Positions 33,682-40,852 of a stretch of DNA of 64,000 bases are shown here, piece after piece; position 1 is the stretch's first letter, and the number at the start of each line of letters is the position of its first letter. The notes beneath the pieces are model-generated. The model ran no database searches. It saw only the letters and a list, made by a program, of their open reading frames with translations, and was not told the origin of the DNA. Source of the DNA: Burkholderiales bacterium (GTDB taxonomy: Bacteria; Pseudomonadota; Gammaproteobacteria; Burkholderiales; Burkholderiaceae_C); assembly GCA_947453625.1 (NCBI GenBank), contig CANGHK010000010.1:1-64000 (forward strand), given 5' to 3'. Position numbers and translations under genes: made by a program.

Positions 33682-34084
33682 CGGGTAGGCCGCCACCGCG
33701 GCGCTGTCGGTCCGCGCAGCCGTTTGGCAGCGCGCGCCGGGTCGTCGTCGTGACCGCCGTTGGCGGCGTTCAGTCGCTCGCTGGCGTTCAGCGGTGAGCG
33801 CTGTGGTGCAGTTGCTGTAGCAGGGCCTGCAAGCCAACGCGGCCGACCGCTACCCGCTGCAGGGTCATGTCCCAGACCGAGCCCGTGCCAGATCGCCAGG
33901 CCGCGGGCAGTCCATGGCGGGCCCAGGTTCGCACCAGCGCAAGCCACAATCCCGCCACCCGCGAGGCGACGGCGTGGCGCGTCAGGCCTTGCTCTATCGG
34001 TCGGGCGGCTATGGCCGTACCCGCGGTGTGGCGGGGGTTCAACGAGGCGATGCGTCCTGGAAGACCAGCTGGATCTGGCCACGA
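33682..34084. other. Non-coding or decayed stretch
   Basis: About 400 bp with no gene I can support. A minus-strand frame of 84 codons (33788-34042) has protein-like composition but no family that I recognise, and may be part of the same decayed region as the M20 remnant beside it. No terminator with a T-run is evident after the importer operon. Confidence 0.4.
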
Positions 34085-34184
34085 TCAAGATGATGTGCAG
34101 CGTGCCCGAGAAGTCGCCTTGCACGGCCAACTGGTGCGCCGCAGCCAGCAGCATCGCCGAATGCCCATCGTGCATGCTGTCCAA
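34085..34184 (-). pseudogene. Remnant of an M20 amidohydrolase gene
   Basis: A minus-strand segment of about 33 codons reads SMHDGHSAMLLAAAHQLA and then QGDFSGTLHII, matching the metal-binding HDGH block and following strand of M20 amidohydrolases such as the intact gene at 8773 (HDGHTAMLLGAA). The cysteine normally two residues before HDGH is lost (SMHDGH), and the FQPAEE block that should follow is replaced by unrelated sequence. No other part of the roughly 390-codon gene is recognisable nearby. The rest of the gap up to 34433 shows nothing else. Confidence 0.6.
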
Positions 34185-34433
34185 CCCCGGCCGACCTGAG
34201 CGACGAGACGGTCGGCGAGCGGGTCAACTGCTGCGCTGCCAGCAACTGGAGCAGCCGCCGGTCGAGGCGGGCAAGGTCTGAAGTCAGGCAGCGCGCTCGC
34301 GGCGCGCACAGGCGGGACCCCGTATGAATTATCGATTTGCGCGATGTTTTGCAGCCTGCTGGCCGCTTGCCCACGCACAATCCGACTGCACGGCAGATCC
34401 TGTCGACGCGTCACTCAATCAAGGAGAATGTCT

Positions 34434-34962: not shown

Positions 34963-35505
34963 TCAGCCCGGTTTCGCCATCTTCTTCTTCGACTCGCTGA
35001 AGAAGGTCTCGAGCGCGCTGGTGAACTGGTGGAAGGCGTCGCTGCCGCCCGCCAGCAGCCCCGACGTCAGCAGGATGTCGACCCCGCGCAGGAACTCGGG
35101 GTCGCCTTGGGTGGGGTCGACCACGGTGGCCAGCAGGCCGACGCCTGCCGCACAGACCACGACCGACAGCGAAAAACCGACCAGCAGCGCCAGTCTCTTG
35201 GTCTCGGTCTGGTAGGCGCTGAGCGCCCTGGCGCCGGCCAACCGGGTCGCGGCGTCGGCCGGGTCCTTGGACAGGCTCTCGATCTGCTGCTTCAGGTCCT
35301 CGGCGCCGGCCTGGCGCCAGATCGAGATCACGATCTCGGTGGCCCGCTCTATCAGCAGCACGATCACGAAGATGCCGCCCAGCGCGCCGCTGACCGACTG
35401 CAGGCTCAGTTCGGGGCGGATGGGCGCGGTCTGCGGATGCGCCGCGTAGAACAGAGTCAGGGCGGTCAGGGTCAGTATCAGCAGGGCTTTGCCGAAGTTG
35501 GGCAT
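34963..35505 (-). CDS. Small multi-pass membrane protein, likely RADAR accessory
   Basis: A 180-residue membrane protein of no family that I can name with certainty. Hydrophobic segments lie at about 5-22, 41-63 and 105-129, with a weaker one at 140-160. Between the second and third is a charged, helical stretch (about 64-104, AEDLKQQIESLSKD) likely in the cytoplasm. The C-terminus is basic (SESKKKMAKPG). The block GVDILLTSGLLAGGSDAFHQ resembles sequences in other small phage-defence or holin-like membrane proteins, from memory. Its ATG, preceded by GGAG, lies within the last 28 bp of the rdrB-like gene, so the two are coupled. RADAR operons often carry a small membrane gene (Csx27-like rdrC or SLATT rdrD); this one fills that position, but homology to either is not established. 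Confidence 0.7.
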   Translation of the reverse strand: MPNFGKALLILTLTALTLFYAAHPQTAPIRPELSLQSVSGALGGIFVIVLLIERATEIVISIWRQAGAEDLKQQIESLSKDPADAATRLAGARALSAYQTETKRLALLVGFSLSVVVCAAGVGLLATVVDPTQGDPEFLRGVDILLTSGLLAGGSDAFHQFTSALETFFSESKKKMAKPG

Positions 35506-38345
35506 CTCGGATCTCCGGGGTTGGGGCTGAAGGCAGGCAGACATGGCGGGCGCGGCCTGTCGGCGCGCGGCAGCGACAGAAAGCGCGACAGGTCGCAGAC
35601 CAGCCTGTCGGCCATGGCTTGCGCGCCGGGCTTCCAGGCACGGGTGAAGCGAGCGTCCATGCCGGTACGGCGGATCGCGTCCAGCCAGTCCTGCACCACG
35701 CGCTCGGGGTAGCCCGCAGCCACCGCCGCCTGGTGCAGCAGGCTGTACTCGCGCAGCAACTGGGTGCCGAAGGTCAGCGGATCGTCCGAGCCGAGTGCAA
35801 TCATCACCGGCGGCGCATCGCCGGCCTCGCGCTGCGGCGGAAACAGCCGCAGTATGGGATGGTGGCGCAGGTCCAGCAGGTCGCCGATCAGCAGGTTGCT
35901 CGAGGGGTTGACCTCGACCACGATGCCGCTCTGCGCGATGCCGCGCCGCAGCGCCCGCTGCACCGCGTTCAGCGCCGCCACCTCGCCGGCATGGATGGGC
36001 AGGTCGATCAGGGTCTGGCCACGCCGGAACACCGCGCCGTCGCTGAGGTGGCCGAGCAAGATCTTGCTGACTGCGACCGGGGCGTGGACTTGCCGGCCTG
36101 GCTGGCGCCAGTCGCGGATGCGGCGCGCCGCAGCCTGGAAGCTGTCGAAGCCGCCGTCGACCTGCGGTCTGGCGGTGAAGGGCGGCAGCATGAAGCGGTG
36201 CAGGAGGTGGTGGGCCTCGGCGAGTTGCTCGACCGGATAGCCTTGCCCGCCGTGGACCAGGTCAGACACCGCGCGCAACTGGTTCAGCACCACCTCGACC
36301 CTGCCCGGAGGGGCTTCTGCGGCGAACTCGGGCTTGATCTTGTAGCGGCTGTAGAGCCGCCACTCCCAGACCAGGTCCCATAGCCGCTCCTCGGCCGGCA
36401 TCAGTATCGTGCCCACCGATTCGGCCCAGCCCTGCGGCTCCACCCCCAGCGCCACCGCATGGCCCAGCCGGCCCGCGCTGTAGCCCATCACATAGTGCAG
36501 TTGCTCATCGATGTGCCGCAGGCCTTCCATCAGGTGGCGGAAGTCCTCGCCGACATGCGCGGTCAATCGCAGCGGTGGCCCGGCGCCGGGCCGGACCGAG
36601 GCCCGCGCCGCGGCATCGGTGACATGGCGGAACAGCGGTGCCAGCACCCAGGTCGGCACCGCCAGTTCGTCGTCCGCCACGTCCAGCCCGCGCACCAGCC
36701 ACAGGCTGGACGGGACGGCCTGTATCAGTTCGGCCAACGCGCGGGCCTTGACGCATTGCTCGGCGAAGTAGCTGGCGTAGCGCCCATGTTGCACGTCGAG
36801 CGCGCCCTTGTCGGGCTGGGCATGGGTGGACGACCAGAAGGCCGGCGGCAGGCCACCAGCCCAGGCCGATGCGGCGTCGCGCGACTTGACGAAGTGGAAG
36901 AGCACGCCGAACTCGGGCTCGAAGGTCGGCCCGGCGCTGCCGGCCAGCACCCGCTGCCAGGACTGCAGCATGCCCAGCAGTCCCTCGGCGATGACCATGG
37001 CGCTGTCGTCGGCACTGGTGCGCAGTTCCAGCGCCTTGATGCCGTGGCCCGAGCCGGCCGACAGCCCATCGACGCTGTAGCAGACCTCGGGCAGGATGGG
37101 CTGCAGCGGTGCCCGCAGCTTGCCGATGCGGCGGTAGAAGCGGGTGAACCACTGCAGTCCGCCGGTCAGCGGCCGCTGCACCAGGGCCCGGTAGACCTGG
37201 CAGCGCACCCTTGCAGCCTGCCAGAACAGCCGGGCGAATGCCGGGTCGCCCCGGCCTTGCGGGTCGGCCTCGCCGGCGAACATATGAGCCATCGCGTGCT
37301 GCAGCAGCCAACGCTCGCCGACATTGCGGCCCCGCAGGCCCAGCCTGACCGCGATTGGATCACAGCGCTCGAACGCGTCCTGCACGCTGGTCAGCGGCCA
37401 GTCGCCCAGCCTCAGCGCACCGGGGTGGATGTCGGCGTAGAGGTCGCGCAGCGGTGCCAGCGCCGGCAGCCGGCTGGCATCGCCGCGGGTCAGTGCGGCC
37501 AGCGTATCGACCAGGGTCTCGCGGCGCCTGGGCGTCCAGGCCGGATGGCGTTGTGTTGCCGGGTCGGCGCCCAGGTACTCGCGCTGCAGGAACCGCTGGA
37601 GATCCGGCCCGCCGCGGATCAGGTGCTCGGCCAGCGCGCAGCGCGCCACCGCCGCGGCCAGCAGCCAGCGCAGCAACTGCCGGCCATCGCCCAGCGGCGC
37701 GCCCGGGCTGTGCAGCGCGTCGTCGGCCAGGTCGGGGCTGGCGATCGCCGCCAGCGCCGAGGCCCAGAGCAGCGGGAAGTCCATGCCGGCGCCGACATGC
37801 TGGTGGATTTCGGCCACGCCCGAATCGAGCAGGTGGCGTATCAGCAGCGGTGGGTCCAGGTCGACGCTGCTCGGTGGCGGGTCGACATCCAGCGCGCACA
37901 GCAGCAGGTCTTCCGGCATCGTCAGCATCAGCCAGCGGTAATGCGCGGCGGCGTCCAGCGCCGACAGGTCGCTGCTGTCCTCGATCTCGGTCATGCCCGC
38001 CCGCGACACCAGGTGGCTGCTGGCCAGCGTGCGCAGGTAGCGGTGCATGGGCACCTTGGTGGCGTCGCCGGCCCGGCTGGCAGCGGCGCCGAACCAGCCA
38101 CGGTCGCGCGCCGACACCAGCCGGTCCAGCGACCAGCCGGTGTGCTGGGCGAACTGGGCCTCGCAGGCGCGCCAGAGCTGGGCGGTCGGGCTGTTGGCGG
38201 CCAGACCGGGGTCGAGCACCCGCAGGCCGCTGCCGAACGCGGCTTCGCCGGCCAGCGGGTAGGCCGCGATCTCGGCGCGCAGATAGGCTTCCGGGATACG
38301 GCGTGGCGCCGCCGTGGTGTTGCCAGGGGTCTCGGCGCGCGGCAT
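35478..38345 (-). CDS. rdrB: RADAR adenosine deaminase RdrB-like protein
   Basis: A 955-residue protein with the adenosine/AMP deaminase active site spread over a much enlarged scaffold, as in RdrB of RADAR anti-phage systems. The motifs occur in order: EIHQHVGAGM (zinc ligands H181 and H183), LTAHVGEDF (ligand H597, catalytic E600), GRLGHAVALG (H629), VVEVNPSSNLLIGD (E811-N817) and ALGSDDPLTFG (D854, D855). Housekeeping adenosine deaminases are about 330-500 residues; the 400-residue insertion between the first and second motifs is characteristic of the RdrB type. Family knowledge: RdrB forms a large shell with RdrA and deaminates adenosine in RNA or ATP during infection. Start ATG 38345, 32 bp after the ATPase gene. 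Confidence 0.85.
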   Translation of the reverse strand: MPRAETPGNTTAAPRRIPEAYLRAEIAAYPLAGEAAFGSGLRVLDPGLAANSPTAQLWRACEAQFAQHTGWSLDRLVSARDRGWFGAAASRAGDATKVPMHRYLRTLASSHLVSRAGMTEIEDSSDLSALDAAAHYRWLMLTMPEDLLLCALDVDPPPSSVDLDPPLLIRHLLDSGVAEIHQHVGAGMDFPLLWASALAAIASPDLADDALHSPGAPLGDGRQLLRWLLAAAVARCALAEHLIRGGPDLQRFLQREYLGADPATQRHPAWTPRRRETLVDTLAALTRGDASRLPALAPLRDLYADIHPGALRLGDWPLTSVQDAFERCDPIAVRLGLRGRNVGERWLLQHAMAHMFAGEADPQGRGDPAFARLFWQAARVRCQVYRALVQRPLTGGLQWFTRFYRRIGKLRAPLQPILPEVCYSVDGLSAGSGHGIKALELRTSADDSAMVIAEGLLGMLQSWQRVLAGSAGPTFEPEFGVLFHFVKSRDAASAWAGGLPPAFWSSTHAQPDKGALDVQHGRYASYFAEQCVKARALAELIQAVPSSLWLVRGLDVADDELAVPTWVLAPLFRHVTDAAARASVRPGAGPPLRLTAHVGEDFRHLMEGLRHIDEQLHYVMGYSAGRLGHAVALGVEPQGWAESVGTILMPAEERLWDLVWEWRLYSRYKIKPEFAAEAPPGRVEVVLNQLRAVSDLVHGGQGYPVEQLAEAHHLLHRFMLPPFTARPQVDGGFDSFQAAARRIRDWRQPGRQVHAPVAVSKILLGHLSDGAVFRRGQTLIDLPIHAGEVAALNAVQRALRRGIAQSGIVVEVNPSSNLLIGDLLDLRHHPILRLFPPQREAGDAPPVMIALGSDDPLTFGTQLLREYSLLHQAAVAAGYPERVVQDWLDAIRRTGMDARFTRAWKPGAQAMADRLVCDLSRFLSLPRADRPRPPCLPAFSPNPGDPRCPTSAKPC

Positions 38346-38377
38346 CGCTCGGTCTCGCGGGGGCCAAGCCGGCTGCG

Positions 38378-40852
38378 CTACAGCGCCGCGCGCAGGCGGC
38401 CGTAAGCCCAGTCCTGCAGCCGCTCGCGCGAGGTCGCCGGCAGCGCGGCGAAGTCGGGCAGCGCCCGTGCCAGGCGCTGGTCCAGGTCGGCGATCAGGAA
38501 GCCCTTGTGCTGCCGCCAGTGCCGCACCAGCGCATTGTCGGCGTGCGATGCCAGCCAATCCAGCAGACGCGACGGCCGTGCCGCGTCTGCCCCCAGTCCC
38601 GGCACGCACAGCGTCGTGAACAGCAGCGGCAGCTGCCTCTCCAGCCAGTCCAGCATCGCCGCGCTGTCGACATGCAGCCGGTCCGCTATCGGCTGTGAGC
38701 GCTCGGACTGCAAGCGGGCGTGCAGTGCGGCGGCCCGGTCCAGCGGCCCGGCCTGGCCTGGCCCGCCGCCCGGTGCGCAGTCCGCTGCGCCGTCCGGCCG
38801 GGTCAGCTCGAAGGTGTCGAGGGCGCAGCCTATCCAGGCCAGCGCCAGCGCGTCGGGTGTGTTCGGCGCCGGATCCTGGCCCGTCGGCGCGACCCGGTCC
38901 AGCCCGGCGCAGGCCTCCCAGCGCCGCCACAGGATGTCCTGGGTCACGAAGGTCGAGAACGCCGGTGCAGGCCAGCTCTGCCGCAGTTCGCGCTCATCGA
39001 GGACGGTCGTTGCGGGCAGCAGCAGCCGGTGCACGCCGGCGACCAGTGGCGCGTCCAGTGTCGCCATGCCGATCACCGCCAGATCAGGCGCGAAGATCAG
39101 CAGGTCGTAGAGCAGGGTCAGCCAGGCGGAGACCAGTTCGGGCAGGTCCGGCGCGGCGGCATCGGGCTCGTGGCGCTCGACCAGGGCCAGCGACAGCAGC
39201 ATGTCGCGGTTGCGCCAGGCCTGCAGCGACGAGGCCACGGTCAGGCCAGCGTCTCCCGCTGGCTCGGCGTCCAGGCTGACCTGGGACGACAGCGACACCG
39301 GGTAGCGCAGCTGCAAGGCCAGCCGGTCGAACTGCAGCAGCGTGGCGCCGCGGCTGTCACGTCGCAGGATCTCTTCCTGCAGCCGCTGGCTCAGCGCGCT
39401 CGACATCGCGCTGCCGGCCGTGACCTGTCGCAGCATGGTGCGCACCAGCTTGACCGCGTCGTCGTCGCTGGCTGGCGCAGGTCCGCCGGCCGTTTGGGCG
39501 GCAGCCCGGGCGGTCGCATCGCGCGCCGCGCTGCCGGCCGCTCGCTGTGCCAACTGCCACAGGTCCAGCACGCTGCGCGCCGGCAGGCACAGCGCCTTGG
39601 TTGCGGCCCGCGACAGCGGCCAGGGGCTGGCGGAGCACTTGGCCGTCAGGTCGAACAGGTCGATCAGGTGCATCGCGCCCGGTGTTTCGACCTGACCGCG
39701 CTGGGCGATGAAGCTGTCCAGCCTGATCCGGCCCAGCAATGTGCGCAAGCTGTCGCGCTGGCCGGCGGCCACCGGTGGATGAAAGGCCAGCGTCTCCTCC
39801 GGCCTGAGCGCATGGACCTCGACCCGGTGGCTGGGTGGCCAGACCTTCTGCGCCGCCGCCGCGCCCTGGCGGCGGGCCATCGCCAGCGTCTCGTCCTCGC
39901 CGGTCTGTCCGGTCTTGCCGCGGGCATCGGGCCCGCCCTGGCTCTGGATCAGCTCTTTCCAGTAGGCTCGCTCGAGGAAGGTCTCGACCTCGGACCGGTC
40001 GCCCGCCATCACCAGCCACAGGCAGGGATGGGCGACCATCTGCGCCAGTTTGACGATGGACTTGAGGTGGTCGGTGCTGCGGTCGATGTTGTCGATAGGC
40101 AGCACGATGGCGCAGCCGGCGTCGCGGCCATGCCAGCGGTCCAGTCTTTTCGACATCGTGTCCATCGCGTGCTTGAACCGGCCGCGGAAGCTGGAGTAGA
40201 TGTCGGCAGCGGCGCGTTGCCGGTTGGCTTTGTTGCGGGTGTCGTTTTCCTGCACTTCCTCCCACATCAGCGTCGCATCGCTGACCAGTTCGTCGAGTTG
40301 CCTGCGGGCGTCGGTATCGCTCTCCTCGAAGATCGACGCCGTCGACGGCAGGGTCTGTCCAGCCGGGTCGAGTGCGCCGCGCACTCGGGTCAGCAGCGTG
40401 GTCAGCAGGTTGGCGGTCGGCGGCAGCGGTTCGAGGTCCAGCGGGTCCAGCCAGACGATGTGCTGGCTGTCCCTGAGCTGCCCGGCCCAGCGCTGGGCCG
40501 CCTCGTCCAGCGGGCCGGGTTCGGCGCCGCGGACGCGGAAATAGCCCGCGTCGTTGCTGTGCTCGACCGCCTGTCTGGCGGTCAGCAGCACGGTGGTCTT
40601 GCCGGTGCCTCGGGCGCCGTAGACCAGGAAGCTGTTGCCAAGCTCGGCCGGGGGGTGGCTGGCGGCCAGGGCGTCGCGCGCGGCCTCGGCGCCGGCCAGA
40701 CGCAGCAGCAGGTCGTGCACTGCGCGGCGAACCGGCGGCACCATGTCGCCCCAGCCCATCGCATGGGCATCGGGTCTTGGCGTGAACTGGGGCGCTGGCG
40801 GGGGCATGGCTTTGGCCTGGCTCGGTTGGCGCTGGTGCGGGCGCCGGGCCAT
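38378..40852 (-). CDS. rdrA: RADAR ATPase RdrA-like protein
   Basis: An 824-residue P-loop ATPase. Walker A is YGARGTGKTTVLL (about residues 78-90), Walker B is CAIVLPIDNIDRS (247-259), and a sensor-like Asn/Asp-containing strand LWLVMAGDRSEVE follows at 278-290. The remaining 500 residues are helical, Ala/Leu/Arg-rich and without a recognised domain, as in RdrA. It is the first gene of a three-gene minus-strand operon with the adenosine deaminase and a membrane protein. Three starts are possible (TTG 40891, ATG 40852, ATG 40807); none has a strong ribosome site. Family knowledge: RdrA rings associate with RdrB and are needed for phage-triggered activity. Confidence 0.8.
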   Translation of the reverse strand: MARRPHQRQPSQAKAMPPPAPQFTPRPDAHAMGWGDMVPPVRRAVHDLLLRLAGAEAARDALAASHPPAELGNSFLVYGARGTGKTTVLLTARQAVEHSNDAGYFRVRGAEPGPLDEAAQRWAGQLRDSQHIVWLDPLDLEPLPPTANLLTTLLTRVRGALDPAGQTLPSTASIFEESDTDARRQLDELVSDATLMWEEVQENDTRNKANRQRAAADIYSSFRGRFKHAMDTMSKRLDRWHGRDAGCAIVLPIDNIDRSTDHLKSIVKLAQMVAHPCLWLVMAGDRSEVETFLERAYWKELIQSQGGPDARGKTGQTGEDETLAMARRQGAAAAQKVWPPSHRVEVHALRPEETLAFHPPVAAGQRDSLRTLLGRIRLDSFIAQRGQVETPGAMHLIDLFDLTAKCSASPWPLSRAATKALCLPARSVLDLWQLAQRAAGSAARDATARAAAQTAGGPAPASDDDAVKLVRTMLRQVTAGSAMSSALSQRLQEEILRRDSRGATLLQFDRLALQLRYPVSLSSQVSLDAEPAGDAGLTVASSLQAWRNRDMLLSLALVERHEPDAAAPDLPELVSAWLTLLYDLLIFAPDLAVIGMATLDAPLVAGVHRLLLPATTVLDERELRQSWPAPAFSTFVTQDILWRRWEACAGLDRVAPTGQDPAPNTPDALALAWIGCALDTFELTRPDGAADCAPGGGPGQAGPLDRAAALHARLQSERSQPIADRLHVDSAAMLDWLERQLPLLFTTLCVPGLGADAARPSRLLDWLASHADNALVRHWRQHKGFLIADLDQRLARALPDFAALPATSRERLQDWAYGRLRAAL

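What the first reader, a model, noticed from the sequence alone, without database searches (positions are those of the whole stretch)
34963..40852. RADAR-type anti-phage operon (rdrA, rdrB, membrane gene)
Seen: a large P-loop ATPase gene, a 955-codon gene with the full adenosine-deaminase motif set (HQH 181-183, AHVGE 597-600, GHA 629, NPSSN, SDDP 853-856) and a third small membrane gene, in one minus-strand operon. Known: this ATPase plus enlarged deaminase pair is the core of RADAR, in which giant RdrA/RdrB assemblies act on adenosine in RNA or on ATP during infection; small membrane genes are frequent companions. Inference: this is a complete three-gene RADAR locus in a GC-rich betaproteobacterium-like genome, with base composition like its neighbours, so either old or from a similar donor. 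It is wedged beside a decayed M20 gene and a stress gene.
Basis: partly seen in the sequence, partly recalled or inferred. Interest (0 to 1): 0.88.

Follow-up and report, generated by a model that had tools for sequence, protein, structure and literature searches.

The report
Divergent RADAR anti-phage operon
This stretch encodes a distant, unusual version of RADAR, a known bacterial anti-virus system that is thought to spoil the cell's ATP during phage attack, here with an altered motor protein and an extra membrane gene of unknown role.

Summary
In detail: three minus-strand genes (34963-40852) encode a P-loop ATPase (824 aa), an enlarged adenosine deaminase (955 aa) and a small membrane protein (180-193 aa). 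The deaminase is a RADAR RdrB: a 47-row family profile matches the solved RdrB at E 1e-142 and ordinary adenosine deaminases at 1.5e-10 at best; its zinc histidines and catalytic glutamate align with those of E. coli RdrB. The ATPase is a very divergent RdrA. It fails single-sequence searches, but its 30-row profile has RdrA as best PDB hit (E 3.8e-8), and profile-profile comparison with other RdrAs gives E 5e-15. The window RdrB lies in a large clade (38 of 59 tree rows) apart from the E. coli type. In its subclade 13 of 13 RdrAs examined carry Asp-Asn at Walker B; 17 of 17 cousins and 11 of 11 other RdrAs carry Asp-Asp. The third gene overlaps rdrB, but its family is not RADAR-specific and was found in none of 103 related loci. 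Likely mechanism: (d)ATP deamination to (d)ITP on infection (inferred). Side finding: four related RADAR operons carry HAM1 and SIR2 domains, suggesting that (d)ITP can act as an immune signal.

The parts
38378..40852 (-). rdrA-like gene: AAA+/P-loop ATPase, 824 aa
   Evidence: family profile matches RADAR RdrA; homologues upstream of rdrB in 13 of 15 close loci, the other two cut off by contig ends
40595..40618 (-). Walker A GARGTGKT (residues 79-86)
40082..40093 (-). Walker B DNID (residues 254-257); Asn255 stands where other RdrAs have the second Asp
35478..38345 (-). rdrB-like gene: enlarged adenosine deaminase, 955 aa
37797..37805 (-). zinc ligands H181-x-H183 (E. coli RdrB H152/H154)
36546..36557 (-). 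H597-V-G-E600: zinc ligand and catalytic Glu (E. coli RdrB H498/E501)
36459..36461 (-). H629 (E. coli RdrB H530)
35895..35915 (-). EVNPSSN motif, E811-N817
35781..35786 (-). D854-D855 (catalytic Asp pair of adenosine deaminases, role recalled)
34963..35505 (-). small hydrophobic protein with about three membrane segments by eye, 180 aa from ATG 35505 (193 aa from ATG 35544); 28-bp overlap with rdrB

Best explanation
The locus is a RADAR anti-phage operon of a divergent, apparently untested clade. RdrA (an AAA+ ATPase) senses infection and docks on RdrB, an enlarged, shell-forming adenosine deaminase. Once active, RdrB deaminates ATP and dATP to ITP and dITP, spoiling the nucleotide pool for phage replication and stopping the cell. 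The third gene encodes a small membrane protein probably translated together with rdrB, perhaps an accessory that tunes or executes the response at the membrane. Shown here: gene order and overlap, homology of both large proteins to RdrA and RdrB, conserved deaminase active site, extra length where RdrB has its insertions. Inferred: assembly, substrate, trigger, phage defence, and any role of the third gene. Asn at the Walker B position suggests that RdrA of this subclade binds ATP but hydrolyses it slowly or by another route (inference).
For: RdrB: PADLOC RdrB E 1.6e-37; NCBIfam RdrB 156.5 bits, more than the 114.6 bits of a Pantoea RdrB that matches the solved E. coli RdrB over 799 of 799 residues at 1675 bits; 47-row profile against PDB: RdrB 1e-142, next deaminase 1.5e-10; profile-profile with 11 other RdrBs E 1.2e-94 over 691 columns; catalytic H, H, H, E, H and D854, D855 in 47 of 47 rows. 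Spacing of catalytic residues leaves room for the three insertions: 180 residues before the first His (E. coli type 151), 414 between H183 and H597 (344), 225 between H629 and D854 (218). RdrA: profile-profile E 5e-15, probability 98.4; best PDB hit of the 30-row profile is RdrA 8hr7/8fnt, E 3.8e-8, ahead of ORC4 at 9.4e-4. Synteny: of 103 related loci 92 have 1.5 kb upstream of the rdrB frame; in 85 of these a member of the ATPase BLAST cluster ends next to it on the same strand; of the 7 misses 5 have it upstream but outside the distance allowed (split or over-long frames), one has it elsewhere in the locus and one has none (a looser P-loop pattern count gave 78 of 92). Biochemistry of RADAR: PMC9994260 (abstract, Results parts 1-3 of 4, passages).
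Against: The ATPase fails single-sequence tests: no PADLOC model, NCBIfam RdrA 13 bits (cut-off 600), no PDB hit by phmmer; the narrow 13-row profile reaches RdrA in the PDB only at E 0.53, behind ORC4 at 0.074. The deaminase is far below the NCBIfam cut-off of 800 bits, as an E. coli-type RdrB also is. Walker B is Asp-Asn, not Asp-Asp. No structure could be predicted, so shell and crown are not shown. I know of no phage or biochemical data for any member of this clade. Among the window neighbours given to Pfam none is a recognised defence gene; they were not run against PADLOC.
Confidence: 0.82

Rival explanations
1. An ATPase-deaminase pair that descends from the RADAR ancestor but acts as a signal generator: the (d)ITP made by RdrB is mainly a messenger that switches on an accessory effector (the membrane protein here), rather than a poison in itself.
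For: Four of 103 RADAR loci carry HAM1 plus SIR2 domains beside rdrA/rdrB: L051 as two genes, L118, L125 and L091 as one fused gene. In Kongming, dITP binds KomB and activates KomC to deplete NAD+ (PMC12948488, passages); a Vibrio record shows SIR2, a non-canonical purine NTP pyrophosphatase and an adenosine deaminase under one match. Membrane companions of different kinds follow rdrB in some other loci.
Against: No HAM1 or SIR2 match in the window. The third gene's family also occurs without RADAR. RdrB overexpression without phage gives ITP and toxicity in E. coli (PMC9994260, passage), so poison may suffice. HAM1-SIR2 pairs also stand without a deaminase beside them.
Confidence: 0.2
2. A housekeeping or catabolic adenosine/AMP deaminase with an unrelated regulatory ATPase.
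For: Pfam A_deaminase matches just above its cut-off (28.7 against 27 bits); metabolic neighbours (ABC transporter, acyl-CoA ligase).
Against: Housekeeping models score 34.8 bits or less against 156.5 for RdrB; PDB profile 1e-142 against 1.5e-10; ATPase homologous to RdrA; of 299 family genomes only its own has a full-length match.
Confidence: 0.03
3. The operon is a decayed, non-functional RADAR.
For: Walker B Asn255 and a decayed M20 gene next door.
Against: Both large frames are open, the catalytic deaminase residues are kept, and the Asn is shared by 13 of 13 subclade members examined, so it is an inherited feature, not decay in this genome.
Confidence: 0.04

Closest known systems
RADAR of E. 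coli type (RdrA-RdrB; solved structures 8fnt, 8fnv, 8fnw, 8hr7)
   Same: ATPase then deaminase gene in tandem; same zinc and catalytic residues; extra length at the same places; homologous AAA+ domain
   Different: Deaminase about 20% identical over the alignment to the Pantoea protein of this type; ATPase recognisable only by profile; Walker B Asp-Asn; third membrane gene; separate clade
SLATT- or Csx27-associated RADAR (rdrABC, rdrABCD; PMC7699616, passages)
   Same: a small membrane gene beside rdrAB
   Different: No SLATT model matched the third protein and no homologue of it lies in the 103 loci. Csx27 was tested only in so far as no Pfam, NCBIfam or PADLOC model gave a meaningful match
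Unannotated RADAR loci of Methylocaldum, Oxalobacteraceae, Corallococcus and others (L054-L068)
   Same: Closest relatives: 44-61% in RdrB, homologous RdrA, Asp-Asn Walker B in the 12 with a usable RdrA
   Different: Other membrane companions or none seen
Kongming (KomA, KomB, KomC)
   Same: Adenine deamination yielding an inosine nucleotide in phage defence (PMC12948488, passages)
   Different: No HAM1 or SIR2 gene in the window; KomA is not built like RdrB and has no RdrA partner (recalled, not tested)

Membership tests
RADAR | RdrB zinc His tetrad and catalytic Glu (E. coli H152, H154, H498, H530, E501) | tested here: met
   H181, H183, H597, H629, E600; 47 of 47 rows; E. coli residues from PMC9994260
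RADAR | Deaminase closer to RdrB than to housekeeping adenosine deaminases | tested here: met
RADAR | Three insertions in the deaminase core | tested here: met
   By sequence only: spacings of the catalytic residues exceed those of the E. coli type, 691 aligned columns with other RdrBs; the fold itself was not tested
RADAR | RdrA: AAA+ ATPase homologous to RdrA, encoded in tandem with rdrB | tested here: met
   but single-sequence models do not find it. An E. coli-type RADAR also misses the NCBIfam cut-offs (RdrB 114.6 of 800, RdrA 127.8 of 600)
RADAR | Walker A and Walker B of RdrA (E. coli G81 K82 T83; D221 D222) | tested here: inconclusive
   Walker A GARGTGKT kept; at Walker B the first Asp is kept, the second is Asn in 13 of 13 of this subclade examined
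RADAR | RdrA four-helix crown, heptamer; RdrB dodecamer; giant RdrA-RdrB complex | not testable with these tools
   Structure jobs failed and the tool was then off; the 169 residues between Walker A Lys85 and Walker B Asp254 leave room for a crown (139 in E. coli, residue numbers from PMC9994260)
RADAR | ATP to ITP conversion and protection from phage | not testable with these tools
   bench work needed
SLATT-associated RADAR subtype | SLATT gene in the operon | tested here: not met
   no Pfam match for the third protein at E 0.1 nor at E 1
Kongming | HAM1 (KomB) and SIR2 (KomC) genes beside the deaminase (assignment of the domains recalled) | tested here: not met
   No match at E 1 in six frames of the window to models built from four RADAR-linked HAM1 and three SIR2 domains

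The most novel reading that the evidence does not exclude
RADAR is not only a nucleotide poison but the signal-making half of a modular immune system: RdrB's ITP/dITP is read by an exchangeable operon-encoded effector, HAM1-SIR2 in four of the relatives and a small membrane protein in this window. In this subclade RdrA, with Asp-Asn at Walker B, is a slow or non-hydrolysing ATP switch that holds the complex on once triggered.
Probability: 0.18. Interest if true: 0.8.

Novelty: new variant of a known kind. Interest (0 to 1): 0.47.

Why it matters
Current library models miss the ATPase of this clade and score its deaminase far below their cut-offs, so RADAR is probably under-counted: one genome scan gave 355 stretches with similarity to this deaminase, of which I saw the best 80, and in 398 genomes of the phylum 11 hold a long frame that matches the RdrB model while one passes its cut-off. 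A clade with an altered Walker B and different accessory genes gives a natural test of which parts of RADAR are essential: hydrolysis by RdrA, and whether the inosine nucleotides are poison, messenger or both.

Tried and rejected
Housekeeping deaminase: rejected by score. Direct identification of the ATPase by single-sequence HMM or phmmer failed, and the narrow profile A5 was not enough against the PDB; the broader A3 profile and profile-profile comparison succeeded.

Carriage by phages or plasmids: no relative in viral contigs with the window protein as query, none in 50,697 phage records; 7 plasmid records hold only distant relatives, at most 58% of the query covered. A family-wide alignment found 6 viral contigs at 27-39% in the best segment; the two of them put in the tree lie outside the window's clade.

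Third gene: no match in plasmids, phages or viral contigs; 1 of 150 family genomes (itself) and 4 of 398 phylum genomes including itself, one of these a weak hit with an in-frame stop. Two homologues were read in context: no RADAR gene lies in the 17-kb stretches taken.

Empty site: of the same-genus genomes with an orthologue of the ligase at 80-92% I took stretches from 8 (a ninth, G697, was not taken). Homology stops at the RADAR-side end of the gene in 8 of 8 (in one only 264 bases more were to be seen); on its other side it stops in 6, runs on in one and is cut by the contig end in one, so no clean empty site was defined. Four other same-genus genomes were searched for RdrB itself; none has it.

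Defence-island test: PADLOC on 10 neighbours of relatives, hand-picked because they looked promising, so not a rate: 3 matched (PsyrT at L064, type III restriction enzyme at L075, TIR at L083). A test of the 107 neighbours listed was planned and not run. The promoter scan found no site. In one search the rows for the third gene and usp were computed out of frame and are not used. The downstream-gene table contains spurious ORFs in G+C-rich loci and is not used as a rate. The tree is a quick build with midpoint root and several long branches. I could not place the S. suis or C. rodentium proteins in it.

Literature: no paper in the open library held RADAR, phage, ITP and Ham1 together; of 17 papers with at least three of HAM1, SIR2, anti-phage and deaminase 8 were listed, and none of these 8 contains HAM1. 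Other searches. Subscription papers were not searched.
Full report
What is there. On the minus strand three genes run head to tail: an ATPase gene (38378-40852, 824 aa), a deaminase gene (35478-38345, 955 aa) 32 bp further on, and a small membrane gene (34963-35505 or -35544) whose likely start lies inside the end of the deaminase gene (28-bp overlap, GGAG 7 nt before the ATG). Composition is that of the neighbourhood: G+C 0.716 and 0.717 for the two large genes, third-position 0.886 and 0.888, window 0.692. The flanking genes given to Pfam are metabolic or general: ABC transporter parts, a universal stress protein, an AMP-binding ligase, a FAA hydrolase, thiolase and acyl-CoA dehydrogenase.

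The deaminase is an RdrB. PADLOC gives RdrB at 1.6e-37, NCBIfam RdrB 156.5 bits with housekeeping deaminases at 34.8 or less, and phmmer at E 0.1 finds in the PDB only the RADAR deaminase (2.8e-23). NCBIfam's cut-off of 800 bits is not met, but that cut-off also excludes a Pantoea RdrB (114.6 bits) that aligns end to end with the solved E. coli RdrB at 1675 bits, so it is not a fair membership test. With relatives added, a 47-row profile meets the solved RdrB at 1e-142 against 1.5e-10 for the best ordinary deaminase, and 11 RdrBs of other types at 1.2e-94 over 691 columns. The E. coli active-site residues H152, H154, H498, E501 and H530 (PMC9994260, Results part 3) correspond to H181, H183, H597, E600 and H629; these, with D854 and D855, are the same in 47 of 47 rows. 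The spacings of these residues leave room for the three insertions which in E. coli RdrB build the dodecameric shell (PMC9994260, Results part 2).

The ATPase is a very divergent RdrA. Alone it matches almost nothing: no PADLOC model, NCBIfam RdrA at E 0.026, no PDB chain at E 0.1. The genome scan changed this. It gave 80 loci (the best of 355), 15 of them with the deaminase at 44-61% identity. In 13 of these 15 a homologue of the window ATPase stands upstream; the other two loci are cut by the contig end. Over all 103 loci gathered, 92 have enough upstream sequence and 85 of these have a member of the same ATPase BLAST cluster next to rdrB. A 30-row profile of this ATPase family has RADAR RdrA as its best match in the PDB (3.8e-8; next ORC4, 9.4e-4); comparison of the 13-row close-clade profile with 11 other RdrAs gives E 5e-15 over 271 columns, from before Walker A to beyond sensor 1. 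Against this, the narrow 13-row profile alone reaches RdrA in the PDB only at E 0.53. PMC9994260 reports that the tested RdrAs share only 22-25% in the ATPase domain, so such distance is normal for the family.

Place in the family. In a quick 59-row tree (midpoint root) the window RdrB sits in a 38-row clade (support 100) from myxobacteria, Pseudomonadota, Thermodesulfobacteriota, planctomycetes, cyanobacteria-like bins and Fibrobacter, apart from the E. coli type (L009), the type that passes the NCBIfam cut-off (L010) and a mainly Bacillota clade; nearest are methylotrophs and an Oxalobacteraceae genome. Several branches are long, so the deep order is unsure. I know of no tested member of this clade; I could not place the S. 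suis and C. rodentium proteins.

A specific difference. At Walker B the E. coli protein has D221-D222. All 11 RdrAs of other types and all 17 more distant rows of A3 (16 of the 17 have their RdrB in the 38-row clade; L092 was not in the tree) have Asp-Asp at this place, but 13 of 13 rows of the window's own subclade, the window included, have Asp-Asn (the subclade has 16 members in the tree, three of them without a usable RdrA). In AAA+ proteins the second acidic residue activates water for hydrolysis (recalled), so I infer that this RdrA hydrolyses ATP slowly or otherwise; a further Asp (D257) is kept in all 13. The sensor-1 Asp is kept in only 4 of the 13, the window among them.

The third gene. 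It has about three hydrophobic segments and no Pfam, PADLOC or PHROGs match and only a chance-level NCBIfam match (E 0.084). Homologues at 29% identity were read in two of the phylum's genomes, one beside genes that look like hemH and adk (names by eye), neither with RADAR in the stretch taken, and none was found in the ORFs of 103 RADAR loci. Other RADAR loci carry other companions: SLATT_2 in L068, a record annotated SLATT in L008 (below the Pfam cut-off), VanZ in L007, DUF4231 in L126, and proteins of about 370-400 residues on the opposite strand in three Corallococcus loci. The overlap with rdrB argues for co-expression; a role in defence is inference.

How it probably works. By analogy with the studied systems (PMC9994260: purified E. 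coli RdrB turns ATP and dATP into ITP and dITP but shows no significant activity on AMP, adenosine or a hairpin RNA; both proteins are needed in vivo), infection triggers RdrA, RdrA docks on RdrB, and (d)ATP is converted to (d)ITP. Nothing here tests this for the window proteins.

A side finding that bears on mechanism. In Kongming dITP binds KomB and activates KomC, which depletes NAD+ (PMC12948488 and PMC12774641, passages); that KomB is a HAM1 protein and KomC a SIR2 protein is recalled, and fits a Vibrio record with SIR2, purine NTP pyrophosphatase and adenosine deaminase under one match. RADAR makes the same kind of nucleotide, so in these operons it may serve as the signal source. A Pantoea plasmid shows the pair without a deaminase beside it, so the pair is not tied to RADAR. 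I found no paper describing the RADAR combination in the two searches named. The window itself has neither gene.

Verdict. Ordinary in kind (RADAR), divergent in detail: a new variant of a known kind, membership well supported by sequence, mechanism inferred.

Noticed in passing
L051 5900-7254; L118 6762-8246; L125 9670-11136; L091 2590-3993: RADAR operons with HAM1 plus SIR2 (two genes in L051, one fused gene in the others), which suggests that RADAR-made (d)ITP can be a signal read by a NADase; 4 of 103 loci.
   Followed up: partly
L071 11297-13200: CRISPR-like array (29-nt repeats at 61-bp spacing, about 30 units in the stretch searched) some 390 bp downstream of a RADAR rdrB of the window's broad clade.
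   Followed up: partly
L058 and L059; L060 and L079; L067 and L082; L064 and L081: Two different RADAR-like deaminase loci of the window's broad clade in one myxobacterial genome or bin (Corallococcus, Myxococcus, Archangium, Zod_Metabat.575).
   Followed up: no
L064 11044-13137: Gene matching the PADLOC PsyrT model (924.5 bits) 236 bp downstream of an rdrB of the window's subclade.
   Followed up: no
window about 34080-34190, minus strand: Remnant of an M20-type amidohydrolase (MHDGHSAMLLAAAHQL; signature recalled) between the ABC transporter and usp genes, not reported by Pfam at E 0.001.
   Followed up: partly
398 genomes of the phylum: 11 genomes (the window's included) hold a frame of over 700 aa matching the NCBIfam RdrB model, but only 1 of 398 passes its cut-off, so annotation probably under-counts RADAR.
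   Followed up: partly
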